64,000 nt of DNA. Origin: Rickettsiales bacterium. Its GTDB lineage: Bacteria; Pseudomonadota; Alphaproteobacteria; G027485855. The notes beneath the pieces were generated by a model. That model made no database searches and had not been told where the DNA came from. It worked only from the letters and a program-made list of their open reading frames with translations. The stretch is from NCBI GenBank assembly GCA_027485855.1, contig JAIXQD010000021.1, positions 62,001-126,000 of the forward strand. The letters run 5' to 3'. The translations under genes and the position numbers were made by a program. Below are positions 7,969-60,679 of this stretch, piece by piece; within the stretch, counting starts at the first letter, position 1, and every line of letters begins with the position of its first letter.

Positions 7969-7979
7969 TATCTTTGCTC

Positions 7980-8345: not shown

Positions 8346-8352
8346 GACTCAC

Positions 8353-8886
8353 CTATTTCTTCTTGCCTTCTTTACGACGAACTTTCTCATCGCTATAGCG
8401 AATGCCTTTGCCCTTGTAAGGCTCGGGCTTGCGCACGCTGCGAATTTCAGCCGCAACTTGACCCACTTGCTGACGGTCGTAACCCGTGATGCTTAGCAAC
8501 GTTGGTTTTTCAGCCTTAATGGTGATGCCATCAGGGATGGGGAAAACCACCTCATGGCTAAAGCCCATTTGCATGACCAGATTTTTGCCTTGCACAGATG
8601 CACGAAAGCCAACGCCTTCAATTTCAAGCACGCGCTTAAAACCATCGGTGACGCCGACGCACATATTTTGCAAAAGGTTACGCGCTGTACCCCAATGCAT
8701 GCGGGCCCGCGCTGAGTTGGAGCGAGGCTTGACGCTGACTTTGCCAGCCTCAAGAATGATTTCAACATCCTCATGCATGGTGGCATTGAGCGCGCCAAGT
8801 TTGCCCTTAACGCTGACATGTTGACCTTTAATATCGACCGTGACGCCACCAGGAACGACCACGGCATGTTTTCCTACTCGAGACAT
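8353..8886 (-). CDS. rplF: 50S ribosomal protein L6
   Basis: A 177-residue L6 starting MSRVGKHAVVVPGGVTVDIKGQHVSVKGKLG and ending PEPYKGKGIRYSDEKVRRKEGKKK, the family's C-terminal signature. It has two copies of the L6 fold and binds near the factor-binding site of the large subunit. AGGAGG precedes the ATG; the stop is seven nt from the rplR start. Confidence 0.98.
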   Translation of the reverse strand: MSRVGKHAVVVPGGVTVDIKGQHVSVKGKLGALNATMHEDVEIILEAGKVSVKPRSNSARARMHWGTARNLLQNMCVGVTDGFKRVLEIEGVGFRASVQGKNLVMQMGFSHEVVFPIPDGITIKAEKPTLLSITGYDRQQVGQVAAEIRSVRKPEPYKGKGIRYSDEKVRRKEGKKK

Positions 8887-39455: not shown

Positions 39456-39511
39456 GTTGCGTCCGTTGAAAAGCTAAGTGTGGAAAGGAAAAAACCAGAA
39501 ATAATTAAGCG

Positions 39512-41266
39512 CTAGAACGACAAGGTTGCTCGCCAAAAACCAAGCACGCCCTCATTTTCTATGCTGCTGCGATGAACTATCGCACGCGATAAAAAGCCAT
39601 CCAAATTAAACGGCCCTGCCGTGAGCGTAGCGCCCACTGCGGCCCCCGCTAAAGTGCCACCCGAATTGCCCTCAATTTTGGGGCGAACATAACCCACATC
39701 GAGGCCCAGATAGGGCTTAAGCCTTGTCTCATAGCCGGCAAAAGCACCAACAGGGATTTGCGTTGAAAGGTCATTGCGCAGATAAAAGCCATCATCGGCT
39801 GCGATAGACTCGTTATAAAAACCTCTAACGCTATAGATACCGCCAATGCTAATTTGCTCGGAGCCATAAAGACCATGCAGCGAATATTGTGCGGTAAGGG
39901 CGCTATTCCAGCTCAGCTTTTGCGCAAAAGCCTCAAATGGCTTGTTGTAATTGCCGCCAATTTTAAACAGAGTAAATTGCGCATGGGGCGAGTCATCGGG
40001 GATGCCGCTCACATCTTCTTGCGCGTCAAAAATTTTCAAGCCGCGTGAGACGCCAAAATTACCACTAATGGCCCCACCCCAAACTACGGTTGAATAATCA
40101 ACACCCACATCCAAAACGCTCAGATTACGCGAGGCCACGCTCAAAAGCTGGCCGCCCGCATAGCTGTTGGTGTCCTTCAAGGTTAGGCCACCTGAAAGCG
40201 ACAAGCGATCGGACTGGCTGCGATAGGCCACATGGTCAAACTTAACCGCCTTATTGCGCGAGTCGCCCGCTGTGACCAAACGAAAGCCACCCGAAGTATC
40301 GGTGAATGAATCGTAGCGCGAATTTGAGTAGCTCACCGTCATGGTGGTGTAGCCATAAGGCACGATAAAAACATAATTTTCAGAGCTTGAGCGTTTGCCT
40401 GTTTCGCCAAAAGGGCGGCTTTGACGGCGCGTAGCGCTGGCAAACTCATTTAAGCCGATAATATTATCGGATGACACAGTGGCGCCCCATTGTGTGCGGC
40501 CCGTGCTTTGCGAGCCTTGATTATCGGCCGTGAGCGAAAAATGCAGCGGAAAGCTGGGCTGATTTTTAATCACCACCACGCTATCGCCCGCTTCAGTGCC
40601 GGGCTTAATTTCCATAGTGGGTTGGTTGCTTTGCAAACGCGCTGCTTGCTCAAGCCCCATTTCAATATCGCGCAAATTAAGCGGTGCGCCGATTACGCCC
40701 GGAAAGAGCAAAGCCAAATTAAGACTATTTTCCTGACCGTCATCTAGCTCAAGGCCCTCTACGCGCCCCTCAACCACTAATATTTGCAATTGCCCGCTAT
40801 TAAGATCCTGGTTGGGCAAATAAGCGCGCGCGCTAATATAGCCAGCCTTAACATACCATGCCGTTACATCGGTGAGCAGTTTTTGAATATCGCTCACGCT
40901 CATGCAGGTGCCGGCATAAGGGGTGATAAGGGCCACGCGGTCATCGGTGGGCATCAGCTTGACGCCGGCCAAAGTGATATCGGTAATGTTTTTGCAGCCT
41001 GTATCTGCGCTGGTGGGCGCGGCAGGTACGGCGGGCGTATCAAGCTGAATGCGCTGACGCTCACCCTCAACAGTGTCACGGTCGCGCTGTTGTTGCAATT
41101 GCTGCTCACGCTGAATGCGCTCACCTTCGCGGGCGGCGCGGTTCAAATCATCGACCGATTGCGCCAAGGCCACATTTGGCAGATACGCGAAAACAAATGC
41201 CGCCGTTAAAACTGGCAAAAATATTTTGGCTGTTTTTGAGCACAAAAAGTTGATAGAGGCAGTCAT
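39512..41266 (-). CDS. TpsB outer-membrane transporter (FhaC/ShlB family)
   Basis: A 584-residue Omp85-superfamily transporter for the adhesin. Signal peptide (residues ~1-35, ending VALAQ), a charged N-terminal helix and linker rich in Gln/Arg (EGERIQREQQLQQQRDRD), POTRA 1 (ITDITLAGVKL ... YVKAGYISARAYLPNQDLNSGQLQILVVEG), POTRA 2, then a ~16-strand barrel with ISIGGIYSVRGFYNES, the family's VRGF motif in the L6 loop that inserts into the barrel. It ends in Phe as outer-membrane proteins do. Start chosen at 41266 (MTASINF) because the signal peptide begins there; the frame opens at 41323. It precedes its substrate gene in one operon. Confidence 0.95.
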   Translation of the reverse strand: MTASINFLCSKTAKIFLPVLTAAFVFAYLPNVALAQSVDDLNRAAREGERIQREQQLQQQRDRDTVEGERQRIQLDTPAVPAAPTSADTGCKNITDITLAGVKLMPTDDRVALITPYAGTCMSVSDIQKLLTDVTAWYVKAGYISARAYLPNQDLNSGQLQILVVEGRVEGLELDDGQENSLNLALLFPGVIGAPLNLRDIEMGLEQAARLQSNQPTMEIKPGTEAGDSVVVIKNQPSFPLHFSLTADNQGSQSTGRTQWGATVSSDNIIGLNEFASATRRQSRPFGETGKRSSSENYVFIVPYGYTTMTVSYSNSRYDSFTDTSGGFRLVTAGDSRNKAVKFDHVAYRSQSDRLSLSGGLTLKDTNSYAGGQLLSVASRNLSVLDVGVDYSTVVWGGAISGNFGVSRGLKIFDAQEDVSGIPDDSPHAQFTLFKIGGNYNKPFEAFAQKLSWNSALTAQYSLHGLYGSEQISIGGIYSVRGFYNESIAADDGFYLRNDLSTQIPVGAFAGYETRLKPYLGLDVGYVRPKIEGNSGGTLAGAAVGATLTAGPFNLDGFLSRAIVHRSSIENEGVLGFWRATLSF

Positions 41267-41304
41267 GGGGCAGCCTTGTTCTGTTGTGAGAAAAATCAGC
41301 AAAC

Positions 41305-41333
41305 ACTTTAGTTTTACATGCAAGCAAGGTCAA
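41305..41333 (-). promoter_or_regulatory. putative promoter of the two-partner secretion operon
   Basis: Minus strand: TTGACC (41328-41333), 17-bp spacer, TAAAGT (41305-41310), about 39 nt before the TpsB start codon. Motif and position only. Confidence 0.5.
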
Positions 41334-41607: not shown

Positions 41608-41681
41608 GCGGGTGTAGCTCAATGGTAGAGCACCAGCCTTCCAAGCTGGCTACGGGGGTTCGATTCCCCTCACCCGCTCCA
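41608..41681 (+). tRNA. tRNA-Gly (anticodon TCC), integration target
   Basis: A 74-nt tRNA: GCGGGTG pairs with CACCCGC, anticodon loop CTTCCAA, T arm GGGGGTTCGATTCCCC, encoded CCA. Its last 15 bases plus AAT form the 18-bp repeat found again at 60662, so the element inserted here restores an intact tRNA. Confidence 0.97.
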
Positions 41682-42132: not shown

Positions 42133-45117
42133 ATGACATTCGAAGAATATCGGCTCGAAGGTCATTTGCGCTATAGCGCGTTCGTGGCGGCGATCCGCCA
42201 TATCCTTCAGGCGGCGGTCGATGCCCAAAGCATCGTGCCACACGCGATCACTGGGCGTGCGAAACAGCCGAAGTCCCTCCTCAAGAAACTCGTTGATAAC
42301 GGCATCGCCCTTGAGAGCGCGATAGACGAATCGATCAAAGACCTCGCTGGTGCCAGAATCATCTTCCTCACCAATGGTCAGGTCGCGGCCTTCAACAACG
42401 CCGGCATCCTGCATGACAATTTCGACGTTGTAAGCGTCAACGTGCACCATCCTGTCCCGGGGACGGAAACAGAAACCAAATTGTTTGACAGCACCAATTA
42501 TCTCGTTCGCCTGAAGCCCGAGCGGCTCGCGCTTCCTGAGTATCAGGGGTTCGAGGGGCTGCGCGCCGAAATCCAGGTTCAGACTTTGCTCAACCATGCC
42601 TGGGCTGAAATGGGCCATGATACGATCTACAAACAGCCCAATCTCCAGCATGTTGGTCAAAAACGTCTCGACGCCATCAAAGCGCGCATGGACAAGGTCA
42701 TGCGTGACCATCTCCTACCCGCGGGCCATGACTTCGACAAAATCGCGCGTGATTTCGATCAGTTGGTGCAGGCCGATGAGAGCGTCGAGGCGACGGTCAG
42801 AATCTTGGCAGAGTCAATCGACAACAATGTGCTGGACGACGCTATCGGCAAGCTCGACGATCTCATTCTTCCCCACTTCGACGACCGGGCTGCCCAGTTT
42901 GTGAAACTGGTGCCACTGCTGATCGATGCGGTTGAGCGTACGCGAGGATCAAATGCTGCGCTGGTTGAAACGGTTTTCGGCAATTATCCGGGCAAGGGCG
43001 GTGATGATATCGCGCGCAAAGTCGCCCAACTCTTCAGAGACCATCTCTACTGCGACCCCGTGCTCACCTTCGCGACCCTCCTACGCCTCTTCATCAGTGC
43101 GGCAACTGACGTCGAACGCAGTATCTGGGTCGACCTTGCCGACAGCTTCTCCAAGCATGATTTGGAAATCTGGAAAAGCCATGGCCCGGCTGTTCCGCGA
43201 TTGATCCTGGACGAGATTGGCAAACTGGAGCCAGATCGGATTCAATCTTCGCGCGGCCTTCTTCTAAAAATGCTGGGCAATATTCTGTCGGCGGAGCTGG
43301 GCGGCACGAGCTCGAACTCCACGTCCGTCACGATCCATCAGGCGTCTGTTCCGTTTTCCGATGTTCTTCGAACGTTGCGCGCCGAGGCCATCACGGTACT
43401 AGAGAGCCTGCTTGATCAGGCTGAGGACGACGCTACGCGTCGGGAGATCCTGCATAAGCTGCGGAACGCGGGCAAAATTCCCCATCGTGGTGGCAACGAC
43501 GATCTTATGCGCATGGTGATGGAAGATGGCGCGCGCGTCATCGCTATCGAGCGAGACCGTATTGGTGCTTGGGGGCTTGAATTGCGGCGCTGGTGCGAGA
43601 CCGATGCGATCCACTGTCACTATCGGTTCCACGCGTTGCCGCCGCACCTCGCGGACAAGGCCGAGCTTGCCACAGCGCAGACGGCCATCATTGCTGAATT
43701 GCTCGCGTTGCGCGATACACTCAATGCCGATCCGGAATTCGTGCTCTACAAGACGCTTATCGGCCACGATTCGGTGCGGCCTACAGCCTGGGACGAGCAT
43801 CCCTTCGACCCCGATGCCACTAATGCGTGGCGGGCAGAATGCTATCCGGACATCGTCAATCAGATCACGGACAACACCGTGGGCGACTGGATCGATCGGT
43901 TACGGCTCTATCTCGCCGAACCGAAATCGACCGGTGGCGAGCTCATGCCTTTGGCTGACTGCCTCAAGCTGCTAGGGGAAACGAAACCCAATGTTGCAGC
44001 CCGCTTTCTCGAGGTGATGGACGAGGCGCTCTCGCCGCTGCTTGTTGCCCTTCTGCTTGGCATTGAGGCGAGCGGACAAGGTGCGATTGCGCCTTCCTTC
44101 ATCTGGCGCTGGATCGGGCAAGGAAGGTTTCTCCCTAACTTGGCTGAATACTTGCGCTGGCAGGAGCTGTTCGAGCCGGACATCTTGATCGCCGTCGCCG
44201 CGCGCGCAATCGAGTTCGCGGATGATGATGCCGTGCTCGGCACCTTAAACACCGTGTCCCATCGGTTCGCCCAGGGGCCGGACCAGCGGCTGATCGATTA
44301 CATTTTTATGCCGTTGATTGGCTATCTAACCGACATGAGGAAGCCGAATTGGATCTTAGGAGCATGGGGATTCCACCACGGGGCGCTGCTTTCCTCGCTT
44401 GACGAAAGCCAGGCGCAGCGTCTCCTCCAATCTTTCGTCGATGTGCCCGAGATAAACTATCGCGCTGACCAGGTGCTCGCCGTCGTCGCGGATCGTTTCC
44501 CCGCGCTCGTCTTCGCGTTTTTCGAAACTCGCATGTATCGGGAACGCGACGGCAGCGACCATCGCTTCGATCCCATCCCGTTTGAGCTTCACCAGCTCAA
44601 AGGACCGCTGTCGCGAGAGCCGACGATGCTGCTTGAAGCAGCACGGCGCTGGTACGCCCGTGAGCCGCTCTATCACGAGTTTTGCGGCGGACGCCTCATT
44701 GGCAATGTCTTCCCTAAGTTAACCCCCGAAGTCACAGCTTCGCTCGCTCTGGTGGTTAATGAGGGCGAGCGGGACGACCTTGCATTTGTGCTCAAAACAC
44801 TGCTCGCTTATGATGGCGATGAGCAAGTCTATTCCCTCTGCATGGACGTAGTCGATCGCCTCGACGAGAGAGACGAGTGGCTCACGCGCGTTTCCGAAGT
44901 TCTTGGCAAGACCGGCATTGTGCGTGGCGAATTCGGATTCGTCGAAGCGGAAGCCGCGCAGCGTGCCCGGCTGGAACGGTGGCGCGAAGATGCCCGCCCC
45001 AAAGTGCAAGCCTATGTTGGCGAGCGGCTTCGCCAAATCGATCAATCTATGGCTTGGCAGCAGCGCAACGCCGAATGGCAAATTGAACAGCGCAAGCGCG
45101 ATTGGGGCGAGGCCTGA
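42133..45117 (+). CDS. 994-residue protein with N-terminal RelA/SpoT nucleotidyltransferase domain
   Basis: Residues ~35-175 match the RelA/SpoT synthetase fold: KQPKSLLKKL, SIKDLAGARIIF with the metal-binding Asp70, and RAEIQVQTLLNHAWAEMGHDTIYK with Glu146. The GYQSLH-type segment that stacks the acceptor nucleotide in (p)ppGpp synthetases is not recognisable; TKLFDSTNYLVRL stands in its place. There is no HD hydrolase, TGS or ACT domain. The remaining ~800 residues are helical and unassigned. The family's domain transfers pyrophosphate from ATP to GDP/GTP, or to tRNA in some toxins. Good GGAG start. Located beside the left end of the island; a defence role is an inference. The next ORF starts one base after its stop. 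Confidence 0.8.
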   Translation: MTFEEYRLEGHLRYSAFVAAIRHILQAAVDAQSIVPHAITGRAKQPKSLLKKLVDNGIALESAIDESIKDLAGARIIFLTNGQVAAFNNAGILHDNFDVVSVNVHHPVPGTETETKLFDSTNYLVRLKPERLALPEYQGFEGLRAEIQVQTLLNHAWAEMGHDTIYKQPNLQHVGQKRLDAIKARMDKVMRDHLLPAGHDFDKIARDFDQLVQADESVEATVRILAESIDNNVLDDAIGKLDDLILPHFDDRAAQFVKLVPLLIDAVERTRGSNAALVETVFGNYPGKGGDDIARKVAQLFRDHLYCDPVLTFATLLRLFISAATDVERSIWVDLADSFSKHDLEIWKSHGPAVPRLILDEIGKLEPDRIQSSRGLLLKMLGNILSAELGGTSSNSTSVTIHQASVPFSDVLRTLRAEAITVLESLLDQAEDDATRREILHKLRNAGKIPHRGGNDDLMRMVMEDGARVIAIERDRIGAWGLELRRWCETDAIHCHYRFHALPPHLADKAELATAQTAIIAELLALRDTLNADPEFVLYKTLIGHDSVRPTAWDEHPFDPDATNAWRAECYPDIVNQITDNTVGDWIDRLRLYLAEPKSTGGELMPLADCLKLLGETKPNVAARFLEVMDEALSPLLVALLLGIEASGQGAIAPSFIWRWIGQGRFLPNLAEYLRWQELFEPDILIAVAARAIEFADDDAVLGTLNTVSHRFAQGPDQRLIDYIFMPLIGYLTDMRKPNWILGAWGFHHGALLSSLDESQAQRLLQSFVDVPEINYRADQVLAVVADRFPALVFAFFETRMYRERDGSDHRFDPIPFELHQLKGPLSREPTMLLEAARRWYAREPLYHEFCGGRLIGNVFPKLTPEVTASLALVVNEGERDDLAFVLKTLLAYDGDEQVYSLCMDVVDRLDERDEWLTRVSEVLGKTGIVRGEFGFVEAEAAQRARLERWREDARPKVQAYVGERLRQIDQSMAWQQRNAEWQIEQRKRDWGEA

Positions 45118-45229: not shown

Positions 45230-45592
45230 TCATCTAGGACCATTCCTTGGCTTGAAATTCCAGCTTCCCTTACTGCGGGAACGCAGGCGCGCTCGGGCGG
45301 CTTCGGCCTGTTTGGCAAGGCGCTTTTTGCGGGCATGTTTTTCCATCTCATCCCGCGATGGCAGAACGTGCTGCACGGCCTCTTTTGCCCAATCGATGAT
45401 GCTGATCGTCCAGTCACTGAGGCCAGCGGCCATGCCGCCGCTGCTGTCGCCACCCGTTTTGCCGTCTAGCAAATCATCGTAAGCTTCAAGCCAAGCTTTG
45501 ATGTAAATTTCCTGCTCATCAGGGCGCAACTCGCGCATAAGTAGCTTTTCAAGGTTCTTCATATTGAACAATAGACGCTCTGGAATATCCAT
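45230..45592 (-). CDS. unknown protein at the end of the mob operon
   Basis: A 120-residue protein starting MDIPERLLFNMKNLEKLLMR after GGGGGAG; the frame opens at 45619. It contains an acidic, helical body (ELRPDEQEIYIKAWLEAYDDLLDG) and a basic C-terminus (HARKKRLAKQAEAARARLRSRS). Such a charge split suits a DNA-bound accessory protein, but the family is not recognised. It is the last gene of the leftward mob operon. Confidence 0.65.
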   Translation of the reverse strand: MDIPERLLFNMKNLEKLLMRELRPDEQEIYIKAWLEAYDDLLDGKTGGDSSGGMAAGLSDWTISIIDWAKEAVQHVLPSRDEMEKHARKKRLAKQAEAARARLRSRSKGSWNFKPRNGPR

Positions 45593-45737
45593 GATCTCCC
45601 CCTGTTTATGTATATCCAATGCGTATATATTAGCGTTTGTTCGTTAAATGTTCCTTTCTAGGCCAGTAATCTGCTTATAAAGCAACTTTATTTCAGTAAA
45701 AGGCTAGAGAGAAACGCACGTCTAGGGCGGTGACTTG

Positions 45738-45985
45738 TTAACGTTCTGGGCCATCCCATTCGCGGCGATGGTCATTTTCTTGGCCGCGTTCAGCGCGTTC
45801 GCGCCTTTCGCGCTCACGGTTCAGTTCGGCTTTAAGTCGCAGCTCTTCACCAAAGGCTCGGCGGCGCTCATCGCCGGTCAGCTCGTTCAAGGCTTCGCGC
45901 TCTTTGGTTTCACGTTCGAGCTTCAACAGCTGCGCTTGCAACTGCTGTTCGCGATCCAGCTCCTGCGCAGCGCGGGCCGCCTCTT
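45738..45985 (-). repeat. duplicated relaxase-tail sequence, copy 1
   Basis: About 245 bp that correspond, at roughly 80% identity by eye, to 46780-47030, both coding for the last ~80 residues of their proteins including the same stop-proximal GPER. Confidence 0.8.
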
Positions 45986-46490
45986 CATCGGCGGTGCGCT
46001 GCTGCTGCCTTTTCCACTCGGCGTGCTGCTTCTCTTCCTGTTGCCGCTGGCGGTCGTCATCCATCTGCCGCTCCCGCTCACGTTCCAATTTCCGATCATG
46101 CTCCAGCGCCGCTGAACCGCCCCGATAGATCATAGGCGAGAAGCCATATTCCTCAATGTGCTTAGCGGCCTTTTTCAATAGTCGGTCACTTGGAAGGCGA
46201 TCTGGATACGAGTTTGCGAACACTGTTGATCGCTCTGGAATACGCTCATTGATGAACAACATCGTATTCAGGCGGTCATTGGCATAGATTTCACGCTGGT
46301 TTGCGGTTCGGAAACACCAAGTATCGTTCGCTCGTATCACCTCAAGCGCATGCCGCGCCAGGCTTTCAACGTCAGTCACCCCATATTCTGCAAGTTCGCG
46401 AAGACGCTTTTCGCGCTCTTCTCCATCATGACTGAGGGCATGCTCAGCCGCGAGGCGAGTATATTCCTCGTCAGTAAGGAGGGCTGACAT
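45738..46490 (-). CDS. mob-operon protein sharing the relaxase tail
   Basis: A 250-residue protein. Residues 1-125 form a distinct domain (VTDVESLARHALEVIRANDTWCFRTANQREIYANDRLN), unknown to me. Residues ~130-250 are an uninterrupted charged coiled coil whose last ~80 residues (QELDREQQLQAQLLKLERET ... REWDGPER) are nearly identical to the C-terminus of the relaxase encoded at 46780-48294. Its start lies four bases after the stop of the small gene upstream. It may share a partner with the relaxase through the common tail. Confidence 0.72.
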   Translation of the reverse strand: MSALLTDEEYTRLAAEHALSHDGEEREKRLRELAEYGVTDVESLARHALEVIRANDTWCFRTANQREIYANDRLNTMLFINERIPERSTVFANSYPDRLPSDRLLKKAAKHIEEYGFSPMIYRGGSAALEHDRKLERERERQMDDDRQRQQEEKQHAEWKRQQQRTADEEAARAAQELDREQQLQAQLLKLERETKEREALNELTGDERRRAFGEELRLKAELNRERERRERAERGQENDHRREWDGPER

Positions 46491-46493
46491 ACC

Positions 46494-46715
46494 CTATTCC
46501 GGCAGTTCAATTTTTACGTTTGAGATGTAATCGCTATGAAACTTTTCCCAGTCATAGATTGTTTGCAAAACATCGTCGATTGACATCATGAGCGTCGCAT
46601 CGTCCATATGATCTTTGCAATCGAAAACCCACTCTAAGATTTGCGCAATGCGAGCCGACTCCTTCGCGCTTATCTCGATAGTCGAGATATCTCCTGTTTT
46701 TGAAATAAACCTCAT
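46494..46715 (-). CDS. small acidic protein of the mob operon
   Basis: A 73-residue acidic protein (MRFISKTGDISTIEISAKESARIAQILEWVFDCKDHMDDATLMMSIDDVLQTIYDWEKFH). The excellent AAGGAGG before the ATG at 46715 fixes the start; the frame opens at 46748. Family not recognised. It sits between the relaxase and the tail-sharing protein. Confidence 0.68.
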   Translation of the reverse strand: MRFISKTGDISTIEISAKESARIAQILEWVFDCKDHMDDATLMMSIDDVLQTIYDWEKFHSDYISNVKIELPE

Positions 46716-46779
46716 AATTATTACCTCCTTTCGTTTTGCTGTCAGCAACTTACCATGACGGCCCGTGTGCTTTCAACGA

Positions 46780-47030
46780 CTACCGCTCTGGGCCATACCA
46801 TTCGCGGCCATGCTCATTCTCTTGACCGCGTTCGGCGCGTTCCCGCCGTTCGCGCTCATGACGCAGCTCCGCTTTAAGCCGTAGCTCCTCGGCGAAGGCG
46901 CGGCGGCGCTGATCTGCGGTCAGTTCGTTCAATGCCTCGCGCTCTTTGGTTTCACGTTCGAGCTTCAAGATCTGCGCGCGCAACTGTTGCTCGCGATCCA
47001 GCTCCTGCGTTGCCCGCACCGCCTGTTGCT
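46780..47030 (-). repeat. duplicated relaxase-tail sequence, copy 2
   Basis: Partner of the copy at 45738-45985; encodes QELDREQQLRAQILKLERET onward to the relaxase stop. Confidence 0.8.
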
Positions 47031-48294
47031 TTAGCTGCTCGGCCTGCTGTGTCAGGTCGTCACGCGGCGCTTGCTCGCGCTCCGCCAAACGTTGCGGCAT
47101 GACCCAATCGAGGAAGCGCGTAACGAGGCCGCGCTCCTCGCGCGCGTGGGCGAGCTGACTTTCAAGTTGCTCTTTTGCCTCGCGTGCGCGCTGTGCGGCT
47201 ACGCGCAACTCATCCTGTTTTCGCAGCTCGGTTTCACGACGAAGGCGCTCTGCCTCGCCACGATAGTAGGCATCAAGATCGCCTTTAAGACGTAGCTGCT
47301 CCAAAGCTTCCAGTTCGGCGCGCTGCTGCGCCCGCCGTGCCGCGTCTGTCTGTGCGTTGATTGCTGGGCTCGCTGCTGCGCCATGCGCGCCACCACCGCT
47401 ATCACCCCGACCTTCGCTGCGGCCCGCCTTACCTTTGCCTTCACCTTGCTCACGGGCGGCTTCTATCGCCCGTTGCTGGAGGCGTTCGGCCCAGAGATGC
47501 TTAGCTTCCTCGACATTCGGCACATTGGCGGGGTCGAGGTCGTGCATAAACTCACGGAGCTGGGCTGCTCTCACGCCATCGATGCGCCGTGCAAGACTAT
47601 GAAGCTCGCACGCCTGATCGAGGATGACGTAGTCGCGCCGGTCGCCTTTGGCTAAAATGTACCCGCGCTCATCAAGCGCCTGTTGCAAATCCGCGCCATC
47701 GGCGCTGGCATGATATGCCTCGGTGGCATCGGCTCGCACCTGATCCACCGTAACGCCGCTGCGTTGCTGTTGCTGAATGTCGGCCATTGAGGGCGTGCGC
47801 GGTGGGCGCTCAACGCCATCGCGCTCGGCATGCGCGCCCTGAACGCGCTCATGGCCAAAGCTGCGCTCAAGTTCGCGCGCGACTTCCTCATGGGCGCGAT
47901 AGTTCCAGCCATCATGAATGGCCTTTTGCTGCTCCTGGTCGATGCGCGACCAGACTACATGTAAATGCGCGCGGCCTTCCTTGATATGCGCCACGACAAG
48001 GCGCGGCTGATCGGTCAGGCCAAGCCGTTCTTCCAGTCGCTCGACTGATTCCGCCCATTGCTCTGCTTCCATCTCGGGGTCGGTGGGTGATGGGCTGATT
48101 GAGGCGTGATAGAGCGATTTCTGGCAGCGCGTGCCAGCGGCGAAGGCGTCCATTTCCTCGAGCACCTCGCGCATATTCTCCTGTGCGACCGTGCCGCGTG
48201 CTTCGATCACGCGCACCAGCTCGTTGGTATCGGTGCGGCGCAAATGCGCTGCCAGCTCCAAGGGGCCGCTGCGCGATTTGCCCTTGATGATCAC
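46780..48294 (-). CDS. MobA/VirD2-type relaxase
   Basis: A 504-residue protein. The N-terminal ~160 residues are a relaxase domain: YHASISPSPTDP and the metal-binding VVAHIKEGRAHLHVVWSRID (HxH motif III of the MOBP class). Tyr61 in SLYHAS or a nearby Tyr could be the nicking residue, but I cannot assign it surely. A middle domain (~residues 180-270) contains a DNA-binding-like ALDERGYILAKGDRRDYVILD. The C-terminal ~200 residues are a charged coiled coil. It overlaps mobC by four bases. It would nick oriT and pilot the strand into a recipient. Confidence 0.88.
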   Translation of the reverse strand: MIIKGKSRSGPLELAAHLRRTDTNELVRVIEARGTVAQENMREVLEEMDAFAAGTRCQKSLYHASISPSPTDPEMEAEQWAESVERLEERLGLTDQPRLVVAHIKEGRAHLHVVWSRIDQEQQKAIHDGWNYRAHEEVARELERSFGHERVQGAHAERDGVERPPRTPSMADIQQQQRSGVTVDQVRADATEAYHASADGADLQQALDERGYILAKGDRRDYVILDQACELHSLARRIDGVRAAQLREFMHDLDPANVPNVEEAKHLWAERLQQRAIEAAREQGEGKGKAGRSEGRGDSGGGAHGAAASPAINAQTDAARRAQQRAELEALEQLRLKGDLDAYYRGEAERLRRETELRKQDELRVAAQRAREAKEQLESQLAHAREERGLVTRFLDWVMPQRLAEREQAPRDDLTQQAEQLKQQAVRATQELDREQQLRAQILKLERETKEREALNELTADQRRRAFAEELRLKAELRHERERRERAERGQENEHGREWYGPER

Positions 48295-48701
48295 TTGCCA
48301 CGCCCCAAGAGCGCCAACAGCAAGGCGCGCACTTGCCGTAGCTCGGCGATCTCCGCCTCCAGCTCGGCCTCTATGGTCATGCGCCCCTCGGCATTGGCAT
48401 GACGGGCAAGCTGATTGAGGTTGCTGCCGATCCGGCCAACTTGACCTAATAGCTTGGCCAGCTCGGCCCGCTCCACTGGTGGGCGGCGTGCCTGACGCGG
48501 CGGCTCGGCCTTTAGCAGCACACGCCTTGCATAACTGCCAAGCGTCAAAGCAGCCTTGCTAGAGGCCGATACCAGCGCGTCATACTCCTCGGGCGTGAGA
48601 CGGATGCGCACATCCTTAGTGCGCTGACGTGTCTCACTGCCGCTGCGCTGACGCTGAGGTGATGCAGCCCCTGAAGCTTGTCTTGACGCGCGATCACTCA
48701 T
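48291..48701 (-). CDS. MobC-type relaxosome protein
   Basis: A 136-residue protein with a disordered basic N-terminus, a ribbon-helix-helix-like RLTPEEYDALVSASSKAALTLGSYARRVLL, and the MobC signature LLGQVGRIGSNLNQLARHAN. MobC proteins bind oriT and help the relaxase melt it. First gene of the leftward mob operon; the stop overlaps the relaxase start. Confidence 0.87.
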   Translation of the reverse strand: MSDRASRQASGAASPQRQRSGSETRQRTKDVRIRLTPEEYDALVSASSKAALTLGSYARRVLLKAEPPRQARRPPVERAELAKLLGQVGRIGSNLNQLARHANAEGRMTIEAELEAEIAELRQVRALLLALLGRGK

Positions 48702-49038: not shown

Positions 49039-50940
49039 GTGAGTGACTTCTGGCCATCGCCCCCGCCGGGAAACAATGCTTTTGGCAGCGCGAAATTGCT
49101 AGCCGCGCAAAGTGGTCAGCGCATCAGCGATCTCGCCGGTGGCCTCAACGGCGTCATTCTCGGCTATAAGAGCCTGCCGATGACCAGCACCAAAGAATGG
49201 CGCTGGGACACGAAGCTGGTGATGACGACGGATATCAGCAGCAATCTTGTAACCATTGCACCCAACCGCTCCGGCAAGGGTGCCTCGGTTATAATTCCCA
49301 ATCTGCTCCTTAGCACCTACGGCATGGTTGTGATCGATCCCAAGGGCGAAAATGCCTGGGTGACGGCGAAGCGACGACAGGCGCTTGGACAAAAGGTTCA
49401 CATCCTCGACCCCTTCAACGAAATTGAGCGCGTCTACGGCAATGACGCGCGCGCAAAAAATGCGGGGCTGAAGAGCCTGCCCGTGGCAACGCTCAACCCG
49501 CTCTCCAAGCTTGATCCGAAATCGGAGCATTTCAGCGACGATGTCGATATACTCGCCGAAGCCCTTATCTTTTACAGTGGTCAGGGCGACCCGCACTGGG
49601 CGGACTCGGCACGACAACTCGTCTCCGGCCTGATCGCCGAGGCCATTGAACGGCTCGGCACAAAGGCCACCCTGACCGATGTGCGCTTTGCCCTCACGCA
49701 GCCACCCGACCGACTGTCAGCCCTCATTAAATCGGCGTATGACCGCAACTCTGACCCTCAGAGCTTCGCCAATAGACGGCTGGCGAGATTTGCGAACCCC
49801 GGAGACAATAGGGAAATCGCCGGTATCCTGAGCAGTGCCGTGACACAAACGGCCTTTCTGGACAGTCCCGCCATCCAGAATAGCTTTGACACCTCAAGCT
49901 TCGACATCGCAGATTTTGCTAAGGGCAATTCGACGGTCTATCTCGTCCTGCCTGCCGACAAACTTGAGACGCATAATCGCTGGCTGCGGATTATGCTGTC
50001 GAGCTTTATCACGGCGCTGACGCGCCGCACTGAGCGTCAGCGCGTGGTGCTGATGATCGACGAATTCGGGACCATCGGCTATCTCAAGGCCATCGAAAGT
50101 GCTTATGGCCTGTTTGCCGGATATGGCATTAGCTGCTGGGCTTTCCTGCAAGACCTCTCGCAGCTTCAGCGCGACTATCCTCAGTCGTGGCAGAACATTC
50201 TTGCCAACGCCGAAGTGCAGCAGGTCTTCTCCATCGGCGTATTCGACACAGCACAATACTTTTCACAAACGCTCGGGCAGGAAACCATCCCGCAGCCGGT
50301 TGTCGGCGAGCCGGTCGGCGCGCCGCAGCGCTTTATGGGGCGCGACCTGATGTCACCCCAAGAGATCACCGCGCTTGAAAAGCCGCGCCAGCTAATCTGG
50401 TTCAAGGGTCTGCCGCATATGGGCGCAAGGTTGGAGTATTTCAGCGAGCCAACGCTCGCCGCCATGGCCCAACCGCTGCCGCAATTCATCGACCAACCAG
50501 CGCCACCTCCGCCCGCACCACCAGGCCCCAACTGGAAACTTATTGGCATCATCGCCTTCATCGGTGTGGCCGTCATTCTATACTTCGTAGGCTTTAATAG
50601 GGGGTATGAAAAGAGCGTCACGAGGGCACAAAATGAGCGTGCGATGACACTCGACGTGCCGACATTCGACGGCACGCTGGCCGATAACCGGCGCGTCAAT
50701 CTCAGGGGCAACCTCTGGTATGTGCCCGAAGACGGCCTGCCCAATATCAGCAACAATGCGATGGATTTCGCCATCAACGCAGCGCAGGCCTGTGCTCGCG
50801 GCGAGCTGACCGCACTCAACAGCCTCCGCGATGTCGGCAGCGCGCGCTTCAACGAAGCCGTCGGTGCCTGCACTAACCAGAAAGCCAATATGCGCTACAA
50901 GGTGCGGGTGACTGAGGTGCGCCTACAGCTCGATCGGTAG
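49039..50940 (+). CDS. VirD4/TraG-type coupling protein with C-terminal membrane anchor
   Basis: A 633-residue ATPase: Walker A APNRSGKGAS at ~74-83, VVIDPKGENAW, Walker B VVLMIDEFGTIG at ~336-347, and LPHMGARLEYF near 460. Coupling proteins hand the relaxosome to a type IV secretion channel. Unlike VirD4, which starts with two membrane helices, this one begins soluble; its only clear helix (LIGIIAFIGVAVILYFVGF) is at ~500-518, after a Pro-rich linker, and is followed by ~115 residues with two cysteines that would be periplasmic. GTG start with AGGAGG six bases upstream. Divergent from mobC. Confidence 0.87.
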   Translation: MSDFWPSPPPGNNAFGSAKLLAAQSGQRISDLAGGLNGVILGYKSLPMTSTKEWRWDTKLVMTTDISSNLVTIAPNRSGKGASVIIPNLLLSTYGMVVIDPKGENAWVTAKRRQALGQKVHILDPFNEIERVYGNDARAKNAGLKSLPVATLNPLSKLDPKSEHFSDDVDILAEALIFYSGQGDPHWADSARQLVSGLIAEAIERLGTKATLTDVRFALTQPPDRLSALIKSAYDRNSDPQSFANRRLARFANPGDNREIAGILSSAVTQTAFLDSPAIQNSFDTSSFDIADFAKGNSTVYLVLPADKLETHNRWLRIMLSSFITALTRRTERQRVVLMIDEFGTIGYLKAIESAYGLFAGYGISCWAFLQDLSQLQRDYPQSWQNILANAEVQQVFSIGVFDTAQYFSQTLGQETIPQPVVGEPVGAPQRFMGRDLMSPQEITALEKPRQLIWFKGLPHMGARLEYFSEPTLAAMAQPLPQFIDQPAPPPPAPPGPNWKLIGIIAFIGVAVILYFVGFNRGYEKSVTRAQNERAMTLDVPTFDGTLADNRRVNLRGNLWYVPEDGLPNISNNAMDFAINAAQACARGELTALNSLRDVGSARFNEAVGACTNQKANMRYKVRVTEVRLQLDR

Positions 50941-52612: not shown

Positions 52613-53182
52613 ATGAGCGACGGACCTCATCGTAGCTTGCCAATGGGCAGGCGCTGGAAAAAGTTAGCAAAATGGGCAGACAACCGATCGTTCTCGGTGG
52701 ACGATTTGTGTGAGCTTCGGGATTCCGCAATCATGGGGGAGTTTAAACGTGAGGTCTCTGACATGCTCATGTCGGAGCTGCGCGACATTCTGTCCAGCTC
52801 GGGCCAAGGATCGCTTTTCGCTCCATCATCTGATGAAATCGAGAACCTCAGGATGTACGCGTGCGGCTCTCCTGTAGGGAACTTGCTGCTCGACTGCGCA
52901 ATAGACGCAGTCAACGCTGGAGCAAGCGGCGAAGCTGCACTCGCCGCTGCGTGCAATGAGACTGCAAATGAAATTTTTAATCGACACGGGCGTGGGATGG
53001 CTGAGCACTATCAGCGTGAAACCGGCGCGAAACGCGCCTCCCATTTTCAGTCCAGAATTCAGAGCGTGCAGAATGGTCGCTCGATGGACGCCTTGGTGAA
53101 ATGTATCGTTCAAGGCGGGCGAGCAATGGTAATACGCGCACCCACGCAACGTACGGGACTTGATGAAGGGGTGGGTCTCTGA
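52613..53182 (+). CDS. unknown first protein of the QueC/ImmA/PIN operon
   Basis: A 189-residue protein from the ATG at 52613 (MSDGPHRSLPMGRRWKKLAKW); the frame opens at 52565. Mixed alpha/beta predicted, with FSVDDLCELRDSAIMGEFKREVSDMLMSEL helical, and a basic C-terminal part (GRGMAEHYQRETGAKRASHFQSRIQSV). I do not recognise it. Its position directly before a QatC-like gene matches that of QatB in Qat systems, but I see no QatB signature. The stop overlaps the next start (TGATG). Confidence 0.7.
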   Translation: MSDGPHRSLPMGRRWKKLAKWADNRSFSVDDLCELRDSAIMGEFKREVSDMLMSELRDILSSSGQGSLFAPSSDEIENLRMYACGSPVGNLLLDCAIDAVNAGASGEAALAAACNETANEIFNRHGRGMAEHYQRETGAKRASHFQSRIQSVQNGRSMDALVKCIVQGGRAMVIRAPTQRTGLDEGVGL

Positions 53183-54558
53183 TGACGAAGCCCCCTAGAA
53201 AAGTACTGCCAAAGCTCGATGTCGTCGTTTTGGAAAAGCGTAGGTGCTCGAGCGGTCGAATCCAATGCATTGTCGGCGAGCATATTCAGTTCGATGAAAA
53301 CCGGTTGCTTTCCTTCTGCTTCGCAGAGTGGAAGCCGGTTGTGTTTGACATGCTTGTCGTCGCTGCTGCCGTTGAGTTCTGTGACCGACTCCAACGACGA
53401 CCGGTCATTGGCTGGAGCCGTGAAATCCACCTTGAGATTCCAGTTCACAACAAGGAGCTTTGGGGGTCACAATCAGTAAAGGCCGCTCTTCTTGCGGCAC
53501 TTGGCTTCCTTACCGGCGATAAGTGGAACGTGACGTTCGTCGCCCGCAAGAAGGACGAGATTTCGCGCACGCAACCTAGCTTGTCGTTACCGAGCGGCGC
53601 TCATGCCATCGTGCCATTCAGCGACGGAATGGACTCGCGCGCCGTGGCCGCTTTGTCGGCTCAAAGGCTGAACTCCGCCCTGATCCGTGTGCGCTTGGGT
53701 AGCAAGCGACACGATCAGCCAATGAAGGATGGGCGTGCCCAGCCCTTCACGAATATTCCTTATAAGGTAAAATCGGGTGAGCGCAGGTTTGCGGAAAGCA
53801 GCAACCGTTCGCGAGGCTTTAAGTTTTCGATGATTGCTGGGATCGCAGCGTACCTTGCTGATGTAAAGACGATCATCATCCCAGAAAGCGGGCAAGGTGC
53901 CTTGGGGCCTCCCTTGGTTCCTGTAGTTCAGGCCTATCCTGACTATCGAAACCATCCGCGCTTCACGGAGCGAATGGAAAAGCTTTTTGCTGCTCTTCTA
54001 AATCACAATGTCTCTTACACATTTCCCCGGCTGTGGTTCACCAAGGGGGAAACGCTAAAGGAATTCGTGACGGAAACCTCCGTGGGCGATGAATGGAAAG
54101 AGACGATTTCGTGCTGGCAGCAAAATCGGCACGTGCCGGTCGATGGACATAGGCGGCAGTGCGGTATCTGTGCCGCCTGTATGCTACGTCGCCTCAGTGT
54201 TCATGCAGCCGGTCTGACGGAGCCAAGTGATCAATACGTGTGGGAAAACCTCAGTGCCCCAAATTTTGAGGACGGCGCGGCAGAAGGCTTCTCGAAAATC
54301 ACTCCAGCTTTGCGGGAGTATGCCATCGCAGGCACCATGCACTTGGACCACCTCGCTGGCTTAGCGGACTCGCCACGCTTCGAATCGACGATAAGGCGCA
54401 ACGCGGCTCAGATCGCAAAAGCCATGAACCTCACGAATGAAGATGCAGAAATGAAACTAACCTCCCTCCTTCGTCGTCACCGCGACGAATGGCAGGCCTT
54501 TGTAGATTCGCTTGGGCCTGACTCGTTCATCCGTCAGTGGACGGTGAACGTGTCATGA
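53182..54558 (+). CDS. QueC/QatC-like PP-loop ATPase
   Basis: A 458-residue protein. The PP-loop is PFSDGMDS at residues 145-152 (family SGGxDS, second Gly replaced by Asp). A QueC-type zinc site is complete: Cys311, then Cys327-x2-Cys330-x2-Cys333 (RQCGICAACMLRR). QueC makes preQ0; longer QueC relatives such as QatC and Cap9 serve in phage defence and act on proteins or unknown substrates. Unlike QueC (~230 residues), this one has ~140 extra residues before the PP-loop and ~120 after the zinc site. Overlaps both neighbours, so co-translated with them. Confidence 0.85.
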   Translation: MTKPPRKVLPKLDVVVLEKRRCSSGRIQCIVGEHIQFDENRLLSFCFAEWKPVVFDMLVVAAAVEFCDRLQRRPVIGWSREIHLEIPVHNKELWGSQSVKAALLAALGFLTGDKWNVTFVARKKDEISRTQPSLSLPSGAHAIVPFSDGMDSRAVAALSAQRLNSALIRVRLGSKRHDQPMKDGRAQPFTNIPYKVKSGERRFAESSNRSRGFKFSMIAGIAAYLADVKTIIIPESGQGALGPPLVPVVQAYPDYRNHPRFTERMEKLFAALLNHNVSYTFPRLWFTKGETLKEFVTETSVGDEWKETISCWQQNRHVPVDGHRRQCGICAACMLRRLSVHAAGLTEPSDQYVWENLSAPNFEDGAAEGFSKITPALREYAIAGTMHLDHLAGLADSPRFESTIRRNAAQIAKAMNLTNEDAEMKLTSLLRRHRDEWQAFVDSLGPDSFIRQWTVNVS

Positions 54559-55736
54559 GCACGATCCTAGACTCCTTCCCGCCCAAAGATCTAGGCGAGC
54601 GCCTACGCCTCGCGCGTGAAGACAGAAAGATGACGCAAGCTGTTGCCGCTAGCGAAGCTGGTATGGCGCGCACGACGCTTGTGGCGATCGAGAAAGGTCA
54701 GCGCCGTGTGCGCCTTGACGAACTTCAGAATCTGACGGGCATATATCGCGCGACGATCAACGAATTACTCCGTCAAGAACCCATTCAAATCAATCTTCTC
54801 CCGCAGTTTCGGAAGGTATCGGAATCCGAAGACGCAACCATTGAGCACGCGGTCTCTTTGCTCAATGATTTGGTGCGAGCGGAAGTTGAACTGGAGCAAC
54901 TGCTCGGTATCTCGCGTTCTGTCGCCTATCCACCAGAGACTCCCATACTCCCAGGCAACGTCAAACTTCAAGCGGAGCAAGATGCGCTAGACCTGCGCCA
55001 ATGGCTCGGCCTTGGCCTCAACCCCATCAATGATATTGTGAGCTTGTTGGAGTTGCAGCTTGGCGCGCGCGTCTATGTGCGCCGCCTACCAACCAACATC
55101 TCTGGCCTGTTCGCCTTCGATGACGCGGTCGGCCCGTGCATTCTGTTGAATGCAAATCATCCACGGGATCGCCGCGCAAACACGGCTGGACATGAAACGG
55201 GGCATTTCATGTCCACGAGGAAGTCAGCCGATGTGTTGGATGACGCAACGTCTGACACCGCGCGAGAAGAGCGATACGCGAACGCCTTTGGCAGAGCCTT
55301 CTTGATGCCTGCTCGCGCTGTGAAGCAGAAATTTCAAGATGTGACGGCGGGTGCGTCATCGCTGACCCGTCGTCACATCATAGTGCTCGCGAGCTATTTC
55401 GGCGTGTCGCGGGAGGCGTTGGTCCGGCGGCTTGAAGAGCTTGGCCTTATCAAACGGGACAGTTGGGATTGGTTCGTTGAAAATGGTGGGATTACGAACG
55501 AGCAAGTGATTCAGGTTCTCGGTGAACTGCCCAGAGACGACCACAAGGATGATGCGGATCGCCCAATCTCACTTCGCATGAGCATGATGGCGGACGAAGT
55601 CTGGCGGCGGGGTCTCCTTAGTGAAGGGCAGCTAGCGCGGTTGCTACGGCTAGATCGCTTGGAATTGCGTGCACTGCTTGATGGCCTGGGCGATGAAGGG
55701 AGCGAGGCCGATGGGGCTCCCAAATTGCTTGCTTGA
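54555..55736 (+). CDS. XRE-type HTH fused to ImmA/IrrE metalloprotease
   Basis: About 393 residues. An XRE helix-turn-helix (LGERLRLAREDRKMTQAVAASEAGMARTTLVAIEKGQRRV) occupies residues ~13-60; an ImmA/IrrE zinc protease follows with HETGH at ~220 (AGHETGHFMS) and the third ligand region EERYANAFGRAFLMP. The C-terminus (~310-393) is an extra helical domain. Such proteins cleave repressors or regulate a neighbouring toxin. ATG at 54555 overlaps the QueC-like stop (ATGA). It pairs with the PIN gene as in predicted COG2856/PIN toxin-antitoxin modules. Confidence 0.88.
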   Translation: MSTILDSFPPKDLGERLRLAREDRKMTQAVAASEAGMARTTLVAIEKGQRRVRLDELQNLTGIYRATINELLRQEPIQINLLPQFRKVSESEDATIEHAVSLLNDLVRAEVELEQLLGISRSVAYPPETPILPGNVKLQAEQDALDLRQWLGLGLNPINDIVSLLELQLGARVYVRRLPTNISGLFAFDDAVGPCILLNANHPRDRRANTAGHETGHFMSTRKSADVLDDATSDTAREERYANAFGRAFLMPARAVKQKFQDVTAGASSLTRRHIIVLASYFGVSREALVRRLEELGLIKRDSWDWFVENGGITNEQVIQVLGELPRDDHKDDADRPISLRMSMMADEVWRRGLLSEGQLARLLRLDRLELRALLDGLGDEGSEADGAPKLLA

Positions 55737-59205: not shown

Positions 59206-60537
59206 TTATGGGCGGGGCGGCTTTGGTTTTTGCCTCGTGGTGTAACCCGCAGACGGCCCCACTGGCTGCTTGGCCTTAATGGCCAGCGCAGCCCTTGCCT
59301 TGGCCTCCTGCTTGTCGTTTTCGGCGTCCATTTCAGTGTGCATAGCGTCCCATCCGCCAATGCCCATAAGCACGCGGTCGGCATGTTTGATGGTGTTGAC
59401 GTGGCCATAATGCTGCTCGATCATCTTGACCGAGGTGCCCATCTGTTGGGCGAGGATATACACATCGACCCCTGCGGATAGCCTGAAGGTGGCGTAGGTG
59501 TGGCGGAAGCAATAGGTAGTGCGCGGGATGCCGCTCGGCCCGTCGCGTAGGTTCGCGTATTTTAGCAGCTCTTCGACGGTGTCGCGATAAAGCCAGACGG
59601 CGGGTTTGCCGTTGATGATGGTGAAGACAGCATCATCGGGCTTGGTTGCTTTCGAAAGGGCGCGGACGCGGTCAAGATAATCGCCCACGCTCTTGGGGGC
59701 GATAAGCTGGCGCGTCTTGCCCTTGCCCTGAACAAAGATCACCAGAATGTCGTTGCCGTCTTTATCCTTGGCTTTGGTGATGTCGCGCCAGCGCAGATTT
59801 TTGGCTTCAGGCGGGCGCATGCCCGTGTTGCACATAATGAGAATGAAATTGTAGCACATCTGGCGGTACCAGATGCCCTGCGGCGTTGTGGCCTCCTTCA
59901 TCCATTTGCGACCTACGCTGTGCAGCTTGCGATATTCCTCCAGCGTGAACTCATCTCGCCGCGCTGTTTTCAGCTTCGGCATGCCCTCAAACCGATGGCT
60001 GGCGGGCACATAGCGCTTGCTGACCGCGAAACTCATGATTGCGGCAAAGATGGTCATCTCGATCCGAATGGTGGAGTCGCTGATGGTTTTGTTGCGGCGA
60101 CCGATGCCATTTTCGCGTCGCCATAGCGGATATTCAGACCAGCGGTCCTGCCCAATGAGGTGAATTTGCGTGCTCCCAACATAGGTGTTGAGCGGCCCCT
60201 TGACCTTGTTCATGACGTTCATCGCCCGCGCCTGGCTGATTTCGCCAGCGTTGGCGCGGCGCTGCTGGGCTTCGGCATATTCCTCGGCCACCTGCGAAAA
60301 GGGCCGGTTGAACACCGGCACGTCATGCTTCACCCGAAAGCGGATATCGGCGTCCTGATCCATCGCGCGGTCGCGCGCGGTTTGCCGATCTGAGGTGCGG
60401 AGTGCGATGGTTTTGTAGCGGTCCTCATTTTGGATGCGGATGCGGCAATAATAGTTGTCGTGCCCGACATCGCCGCGCCGGAAAATGATCAGTCCTGCCT
60501 TGATCTGCTCTTTGTCGGTTATAAACGTCATGGCCAT
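59206..60537 (-). CDS. int: tyrosine recombinase integrase
   Basis: A 443-residue phage-type integrase. The N-terminal SAM-like core-binding domain (~80-190) precedes a catalytic domain with Arg in NTGMRPPEAKNLRW (~241), HxxR in CFRHTYATFRL (~347), and the nucleophile in IEQHYGHVN (~376). An N-terminal ~75 residues (YYCRIRIQNEDRYKTIALRT) look like an arm-binding domain. The gene lies at the right end, start ~125 nt from attR, as in tRNA-targeting elements. Confidence 0.94.
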   Translation of the reverse strand: MAMTFITDKEQIKAGLIIFRRGDVGHDNYYCRIRIQNEDRYKTIALRTSDRQTARDRAMDQDADIRFRVKHDVPVFNRPFSQVAEEYAEAQQRRANAGEISQARAMNVMNKVKGPLNTYVGSTQIHLIGQDRWSEYPLWRRENGIGRRNKTISDSTIRIEMTIFAAIMSFAVSKRYVPASHRFEGMPKLKTARRDEFTLEEYRKLHSVGRKWMKEATTPQGIWYRQMCYNFILIMCNTGMRPPEAKNLRWRDITKAKDKDGNDILVIFVQGKGKTRQLIAPKSVGDYLDRVRALSKATKPDDAVFTIINGKPAVWLYRDTVEELLKYANLRDGPSGIPRTTYCFRHTYATFRLSAGVDVYILAQQMGTSVKMIEQHYGHVNTIKHADRVLMGIGGWDAMHTEMDAENDKQEAKARAALAIKAKQPVGPSAGYTTRQKPKPPRP

Positions 60538-60661: not shown

Positions 60662-60679
60662 CCCTCACCCGCTCCAAAT
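60662..60679. repeat. attR: 18-bp core
   Basis: CCCTCACCCGCTCCAAAT, identical to the tRNA-Gly 3' end at 41667-41684. Confidence 0.92.

What the first reader, a model, noticed from the sequence alone, without database searches (positions are those of the whole stretch)
45738..48294. A relaxase tail duplicated onto a second mob-operon protein
The last ~80 residues of the relaxase and of the 250-residue protein two genes later are nearly identical, and the DNA matches at ~80%. Shared tails are how some secretion substrates carry a common transport signal or docking site. The second protein may therefore be co-delivered with the relaxase or share its coupling protein.
Basis: partly seen in the sequence, partly recalled or inferred. 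Interest (0 to 1): 0.55.

Follow-up and report, generated by a model that had tools for sequence, protein, structure and literature searches.

The report
Relaxase tail on a toxin-like protein
A mobile DNA element carries a toxin-like protein whose last 80 or so residues copy the tail of the element's own DNA-transfer enzyme, and a distant relative shows the same pairing with a different tail, which suggests that the tail is a delivery tag for sending the protein into recipient cells along with the DNA.

Summary
The last 82 residues of the MOBP relaxase (46780-48294, minus strand) and of the 250-residue protein two genes on (45738-46490) come from one 247-nt repeat, 83% identical and ending at both stop codons. 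It is the only such repeat in the window. The copies are old but kept: dS 0.69, dN 0.09.
A diverged element (UBA656, L023) has the same gene order. Its two tails match each other (83%) but not the window's (40-45%), although the 250-aa protein's front half is 61% conserved. Pairs match by element, not by gene.
The front half is a distant relative of C-terminal toxin domains of CdiA/filamentous-haemagglutinin, RHS and MafB-like proteins; its weak model resembles BECR tRNases. An acidic 73-84-aa gene, coupled to it and found only with it, is a candidate immunity protein.
Best reading: a toxin-like effector carrying its relaxase's T4SS docking tail, encoded by a ~19-kb integrative mobilizable element at tRNA-Gly. 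It works like Bartonella VbhT, with an unrelated toxin domain and tail. Delivery and toxicity are inferred, not shown.

The parts
46780..48294 (-). MOBP-type relaxase, 504 aa (MobA/VirD2-like nuclease domain, residues 30-147)
   Evidence: Pfam PF03432 E 3.6e-21; 55% identical over residues 1-265 to the pTF4.1 relaxase, typed MOBP
46781..47027 (-). relaxase C-terminal tail, repeat copy 1
   Evidence: 83% DNA identity to copy 2
46494..46715 (-). 73-aa acidic protein (pI 4.5; the longer ORF to 46748 gives 84 aa), candidate immunity protein/antitoxin; start preceded by GGAGGT
   Evidence: ORF; pI; junctions; 45% identical homologue in the same place in L023; absent from the C9 operon that lacks the 250-aa gene. 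No known family
45738..46490 (-). 250-aa second protein: toxin-like N-domain plus relaxase tail
46089..46490 (-). N-terminal domain (residues 1-134), related to polymorphic-toxin C-terminal domains, BECR-like model
   Evidence: HMM hit to a Fil_haemagg_2 protein's C-terminus, 5.8e-8; hhalign score 37.0 against at most 17.8 in 200 shuffles; model pLDDT 73, best VIA rows CdiA toxin and colicin D
45739..45985 (-). tail of the second protein, repeat copy 2
   Evidence: dS 0.69, dN 0.09 to copy 1
45230..45619 (-). 129-aa protein; in the C9 operon its homologue directly follows the relaxase, so the 84-aa + 250-aa pair is an insertion relative to C9
48291..48701 (-). MobC/NikA-like relaxosome protein
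   Evidence: Pfam PF21983 4.6e-15, PF05713 7.7e-7
49039..50940 (+). type IV coupling protein, the element's own and the presumed receptor of the tails
   Evidence: Pfam PF02534 1.5e-61, PF12696 2e-22
41608..41681 (+). tRNA-Gly(tcc), presumed integration site (left end of the element)
59206..60537 (-). tyrosine integrase
   Evidence: Pfam PF00589 1.6e-10
60662..60679 (+). 18-bp exact copy of the tRNA-Gly 3' end, presumed right attachment site

Best explanation
The second protein is a conjugation-associated effector. Its N-terminal domain is a BECR-like, probably RNase-type, toxin domain of the kind carried at the C-termini of contact-dependent toxins. Its C-terminal ~80 residues are a copy of the element's relaxase tail and serve as the docking/translocation signal for the same coupling protein and type IV secretion channel. 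The acidic protein just upstream protects the donor, and later the transconjugant, as immunity protein or antitoxin. When the element is mobilised, the toxin would enter the recipient beside the relaxase-DNA complex. There it would either favour establishment or make the recipient depend at once on the incoming immunity gene. Shown: the tail identity, its age and conservation, the matched tails in two elements, the remote homology of the N-domain, the gene order. Inferred: that the tail is read by the coupling protein, that the domain is an active RNase, that the small gene is its antidote, and that delivery happens.
For: (1) Tails match within elements (79% and 83% aa) but not between them (40-45%), while the N-domain is 61% and the relaxase nuclease domains 75% identical. 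Trees of the tails join the UBA656 pair at 98-100% and separate it from the window pair. (2) dN/dS of about 0.1 between old copies in both elements: 0.09/0.69 and 0.08/0.91. (3) N-domain homology: A6 versus six toxin domains, hhalign E 9e-6, score 37.0; 200 column shuffles reach at most 17.8. The profile that includes G045 finds a haemagglutinin C-terminus followed by Imm42; that domain recurs in VENN/CdiA-type, DUF637, RHS and MafB-type records. His17, Thr76, Thr89 and Phe91 are invariant in 9 sequences. (4) Model: helices then four strands; VIA rows 1-5 and 10-11 are CdiA toxins and colicin D, Z 4.3 to 2.9. (5) Small acidic gene coupled to the toxin-like gene, present in 2 of 2 loci with it, absent from C9. 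(6) Published precedent: VbhT carries a signal virtually identical to its relaxase's and is secreted (PMC5675462, passages).
Against: The last 20 residues of both window tails have net charge -2.1, not the positive C-terminus usual for VirB/VirD4 signals. No VirB4 (PF03135) or F-type TraC match was found in the window's genome, so a helper T4SS is needed. Foldseek gave nothing at E<=0.001; VIA Z is below 5 throughout, a level the tool calls common. The small protein has no known family, and its model is poor (pLDDT 59). Tail matching rests on two elements; gene conversion plus ordinary purifying selection could give it without a secretion role.
Confidence: 0.6

Rival explanations
1. Homotypic docking: the tail is a charged helix by which the relaxase associates with itself, and the second protein uses the same helix to bind the relaxase. 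It acts in the relaxosome or rides along on the relaxase; the coupling protein does not read the tail directly.
For: The tail is highly charged and looks helical by eye (sequence); matched tails within each element are also what a self-association helix would need. It would give co-delivery all the same.
Against: No dimerisation evidence; no fold of the tail was run. The toxin-like domain gives no reason for a donor-side relaxosome role.
Confidence: 0.2
2. By-product: the gene pair was inserted beside the relaxase together with a duplicate of the relaxase 3' end. Gene conversion between copies 1 kb apart keeps them alike, and the tail has no transport role in the second protein.
For: The C9 operon lacks the pair. 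Another relaxase locus (L117) has a partial copy of its relaxase 3' region (119 nt, 77%) beyond a cargo gene, with no intact tail end. The C2 orphan looks like an element remnant.
Against: dS of 0.69 and 0.91 means no recent conversion, yet dN stays at 0.08-0.09 in both elements; the partial copy in L117 has lost the tail end.
Confidence: 0.15
3. A toxin-antitoxin pair that acts only inside its own cell (addiction or defence), the tail serving stability or regulation.
For: Gene order and coupling (small acidic gene first) resemble TA modules; the neighbouring C9 and UBA656 loci carry other TA genes (AbiE-like and HipAB-like by eye).
Against: Does not explain why the tail follows its own relaxase's sequence in each element, nor the homology to exported toxin domains.
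Confidence: 0.15

Closest known systems
VbhT/VbhA of Bartonella schoenbuchensis pVbh (PMC5675462; passages seen)
   Same: A toxin with a C-terminal signal virtually identical to that of its own plasmid's relaxase, encoded with a small antitoxin near the transfer genes, shown there to be secreted into recipients by the conjugative T4SS
   Different: The toxin domain is not FIC, the tail is not a recognised BID domain (no Pfam match), the relaxase is MOBP-like, the carrier is a mobilizable element with its own coupling protein; secretion not shown here
BID-bearing PezT toxin of Chelativorans plasmid 1 (same paper)
   Same: A different toxin type given a relaxase-type signal in a transfer region
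   Different: BID signal and a kinase-type toxin; also only predicted to be secreted
Xanthomonas/Stenotrophomonas X-T4SS effectors with XVIPCD (search listing and abstract starts only)
   Same: Toxin, shared C-terminal T4SS domain, immunity partner
   Different: Their signal is a family domain on many effectors, not a copy of one relaxase tail; chromosomal killing system (partly recalled)
BECR toxins: CdiA-CT, colicin D (PMC9086364; passages seen)
   Same: Remote sequence homology of the N-domain to CdiA/FHA C-termini; best, though weak, structural matches
   Different: There delivered by CdiA or bacteriocin parts, not by a relaxase-like tail; activity unknown here
Polyvalent proteins of phages and conjugative elements, including PBECR (PMC5512222; passages seen)
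   Same: Toxin-like and RNase-like domains predicted to enter the recipient with the DNA
   Different: Large multidomain proteins; no shared relaxase tail or separate immunity gene described in the passages seen

Membership tests
VbhT-type interbacterial effector | C-terminal signal nearly identical to that of the cognate relaxase | tested here: met
   79% aa, 83% DNA; same pairing in L023
VbhT-type interbacterial effector | FIC toxin domain and BID domain | tested here: not met
   no FIC or BID family among Pfam matches at E<=1 or at E<=10 for the N-domain alone
VbhT-type interbacterial effector | secretion into recipients through the conjugative T4SS | not testable with these tools
   needs a transfer assay
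BECR-fold toxin domain | sequence homology to known polymorphic-toxin C-terminal domains | tested here: met
   remote, and strongest through the G045 bridge
BECR-fold toxin domain | N-terminal helix then four or five strands, superposable on BECR structures | tested here: inconclusive
   secondary structure fits; best Z 4.3 to 8ey4, 4.0 to colicin D; Foldseek not significant
BECR-fold toxin domain | RNase activity | not testable with these tools
   needs a biochemical assay
X-T4SS effector (XVIPCD) | XVIPCD C-terminal domain | tested here: inconclusive
   no Pfam match to the tail; whether the library holds an XVIPCD model was not checked
Integrative mobilizable element | integrase and direct repeats at a tRNA gene | tested here: met
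Integrative mobilizable element | relaxase but no own mating-pair apparatus | tested here: met
   no VirB4 (PF03135) or TIGR02746 match in G000, a draft genome

The most novel reading that the evidence does not exclude
A MOBP mobilizable element has armed itself by appending its relaxase's private coupling-protein key to a CDI-type tRNase-like toxin, and the key is kept in step between the two proteins as it changes from element to element. Matched tails then mark the substrate signal of a relaxase class whose signal is otherwise hard to predict, and they reveal a transfer-coupled toxin system unrelated to BID/FIC.
Probability: 0.5. Interest if true: 0.78.

Novelty: new variant of a known kind. 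Interest (0 to 1): 0.62.

Why it matters
T4SS signals are hard to see in sequence; the Bartonella study (PMC5675462, passages) says so and expects more secreted toxins to be found. Two copies of a tail that change together from element to element are a natural experiment: they show which residues must stay the same for both proteins. If the tail is a signal, it offers a simple genomic search rule (a neighbour that shares its relaxase's C-terminus) for toxins sent with conjugating DNA, and a pair of elements with different keys to swap.

Tried and rejected
Chance or low complexity: rejected (shuffles and self-comparison).

Recent neutral duplication: rejected on dS/dN; gene conversion some time in the past is likely and is kept as part of a rival.

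A genome-wide effector family sharing the tail: not found. In G000 the profile hits only the two window proteins, the C9 relaxase and the C2 orphan.

Wider spread of the second protein: the single-sequence search of 190 relatives matched 2 (the window's own genome and, weakly, G045). The profile matched only UBA656 itself in 298 family genomes and in 45 genus genomes. Plasmid records gave none, phage records none (N-domain only), viral contigs no relative. So it is rare or under-sampled. The N-domain profile matched 5 of 385 class genomes: own, G045, G026, and two weak ones (E 0.002 and 0.008) that I did not follow up.

Known families for the second and small proteins: nothing meaningful in Pfam, NCBIfam, PHROGs or PADLOC. 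Sequence search of solved structures with the N-domain gave only matches that I take as noise, such as helical repeats and ferrochelatases. The CdiA toxin 8ey4 came up at E 0.039 with the toxin-family profile; one member of that family searched alone gave nothing useful.

Structure of the 84-aa protein: poor; not searched further. The small gene's profile gave only weak matches (E>=0.006) in 5 of 385 genomes besides its own; not followed.

oriT, promoters, RNA families and the fold of the tail itself were not examined. The T4SS of UBA656 (L055 fetched) was not studied.

Full report
What is there. On the minus strand the window has a mob operon: MobC/NikA-like protein (48291-48701), MOBP-type relaxase (46780-48294), an acidic 84-aa ORF (46494-46748; a GGAGGT-led ATG at 46715 gives 73 aa), a 250-aa protein (45738-46490) and a 129-aa protein (45230-45619). 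A coupling protein is divergent upstream (49039-50940). The 3' ends of the relaxase and 250-aa genes are one direct repeat of 247 nt, 83% identical, which begins near residue 423 and 169 respectively and stops at the stop codons. It is the only repeat of its strength in the 64 kb.

The carrier. A tRNA-Gly at 41608-41681 has an 18-bp exact copy of its 3' end at 60662-60679, next to an integrase (59206-60537). The operon thus lies in a ~19-kb integrative element. It has a relaxase and coupling protein, but neither VirB4 (PF03135) nor TIGR02746 matches its genome (2.37 Mb, 34 contigs, estimated 97.8% complete), so it is best called mobilizable.

Paralogues in the same genome. A second mob operon on contig C9 has MobC, a relaxase (58% identical overall; 75% over the nuclease domain) and then directly the 140-aa homologue of the 129-aa protein. 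The small and 250-aa genes are missing there. A third, orphan ORF on C2 (265 aa) holds a relaxase C-terminal region followed by a window-type tail. It lies beside another tRNA-Gly that shares 61 bp (93%) with the window's integration site, so it is probably the remnant of a related element.

The same design elsewhere. One scan of genome contigs with a relaxase alignment returned 7 loci. The closest, in Sphingomonadales MAG UBA656 (L023), has relaxase (7001-8503), a 101-aa homologue of the small protein (45% identical), a 241-aa homologue of the 250-aa protein, and a 158-aa homologue of the 129-aa protein, in that order. Its two tails are 71/86 (83%) identical to each other, and the window's two are 70/89 (79%). 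Across elements, relaxase tails are 34/76 (45%) and second-protein tails 29/73 (40%) identical. The second proteins' front 134 residues are 61% identical. The tails thus match by element, not by gene. Trees on DNA and protein join the UBA656 pair (100 and 98% bootstrap) and set it with the C9 relaxase, apart from the window pair and C2 (100%). Synonymous divergence inside the pairs is 0.69 and 0.91, amino-acid divergence 0.09 and 0.08. Across elements the tails have dN 0.66 and 0.74, the nuclease domain 0.17, the second protein's front 0.34. So the tail is a fast-changing segment between elements, yet both copies in an element are held nearly the same. That is what a shared element-specific binding partner predicts; conversion at some past time in each lineage is the likely mechanism. 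Only two elements support it.

How general. A test for any other ORF sharing the relaxase tail was positive at 2 of 15 loci, the window and L023. Of 43 matches in the last genome search (34 of 397 genomes) I fetched 37. The six left out were UBA656's own two, one partial match at a contig start, and three fragmentary or partial ones. None of the 37 has a second ORF ending in its relaxase's tail; two of them (L106, L116) have under 120 bp downstream, and L088 looks like the same genome as L028. L117 has a 119-nt, 77% partial copy of its relaxase 3' region beyond a transporter-like gene, without the tail end. Two loci (L102, L124) had weak hits, the strongest at E 4e-4, that I take as noise. Loci without the second protein also lack its tail; both loci with it have the tail.

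What the second protein is. By sequence alone it has no family. A single-sequence search of 190 relatives gave one weak hit besides its own genome, G045 (29%, E 4.6e-7). A three-row profile of the front domain then found, among 385 genomes, a C-terminal domain in G026 (E 5.8e-8), on a protein with haemagglutinin repeats followed by an Imm42 gene. That domain occurs in 27 plasmid records, annotated among others as VENN pre-toxin, DUF637, RHS and 'mAFB alternative' proteins. Without G045, the two-row front-domain profile still matches the six-row toxin profile (hhalign score 37.0, E 9e-6, probability 83%). Two hundred column shuffles gave at most 17.8, the reversed profile 14.2, and three unrelated profiles at most 19.0. 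His17, Thr76, Thr89 and Phe91 are invariant in the nine-row alignment. The AlphaFold model (pLDDT 73, pTM 0.70, from two sequences) has helices followed by four strands. Foldseek is not significant, though three of its first four rows are colicin D (two of them titled only 'ribonuclease from E. coli'; that these are colicin D is recalled). VIA puts a CdiA toxin (8ey4, Z 4.3, rmsd 3.4, 76 aligned) and four colicin D entries (Z 4.0-3.6) at rows 1-5 and CdiA NC101 at 10-11. The profile of the toxin family independently has 8ey4 as best solved-structure match, at a weak E of 0.039. I take a BECR-like toxin domain as likely, not proven. A review describes all characterised BECR CdiA toxins but one as tRNases (PMC9086364, passages).

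The small gene. It is acidic (pI 4.5), led by a strong Shine-Dalgarno-like GGAGGT and coupled to the next gene (overlap in UBA656, 3-nt gap in the window). It is found only with the 250-aa gene. Immunity protein or antitoxin is the natural reading, but it has no known relatives and its model is poor.

Mechanism and comparison. The best-supported account is a toxin-like effector with its relaxase's T4SS tail. It works like VbhT of Bartonella pVbh, whose BID signal is virtually identical to that of its relaxase and which is secreted during conjugation (PMC5675462, passages). It is not a member of that family: no FIC or BID match. Against the account stand the net negative tail end, the lack of a T4SS in the genome and the weak structural scores. 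Searches of the paper library for relaxase with toxin domain/immunity/translocation signal, polymorphic toxin, concerted evolution, fused toxin/interbacterial effector, tRNase and mobilizable element/toxin listed no paper that by title and abstract start describes this combination; subscription journals and preprints are not covered.

Noticed in passing
window 49039-50940; L023 4204-6180; L008 10001-11902: The coupling proteins have no hydrophobic N-terminal segment but one strong hydrophobic segment near residue 501-526 followed by a ~115-residue C-terminal domain. That domain is 79% identical between the window and UBA656 but 33% to C9, although UBA656 and C9 are closer over the core: a swapped module that goes with the presence of the second protein.
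   Followed up: partly
window 53182-56322; L117 6447-9604: A three-gene cassette (QueC-like protein, HTH plus M78 peptidase, ~215-aa third protein) in the element recurs beside another relaxase locus (38% and 53% identity for the first two; the third matched by eye); possibly a defence or regulatory cassette.
   Followed up: partly
window 28653-41323: A two-partner secretion pair (3600-aa TPS/haemagglutinin-repeat protein and ShlB-type transporter) lies just outside the element, next to its tRNA-Gly; its last 350 residues do not look toxin-like by eye.
   Followed up: partly
window 42133-45117: A 994-aa protein with a RelA/SpoT-like domain, weakly like PADLOC PDC-S33, as probable cargo.
   Followed up: no
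window 56336-58785: A BsuBI/PstI-type restriction endonuclease and an Eco57I-like methylase inside the element.
   Followed up: no
L007 5972-6769 (G000 contig C2): An orphan 265-aa ORF with a relaxase C-terminal region followed by a window-type tail, near a second tRNA-Gly: probably an element remnant.
   Followed up: partly
L117 4533-4651 and 6091-6209: A relaxase 3' region repeated (119 nt, 77%) on the far side of a transporter-like gene: cargo may enter such operons with duplication of the relaxase end.
   Followed up: partly
L009 5005-5902: G045 has a stand-alone relative of the toxin-like domain, overlapped at its start by an acidic-looking 133-aa ORF: possibly another toxin-antidote pair.
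   Followed up: no
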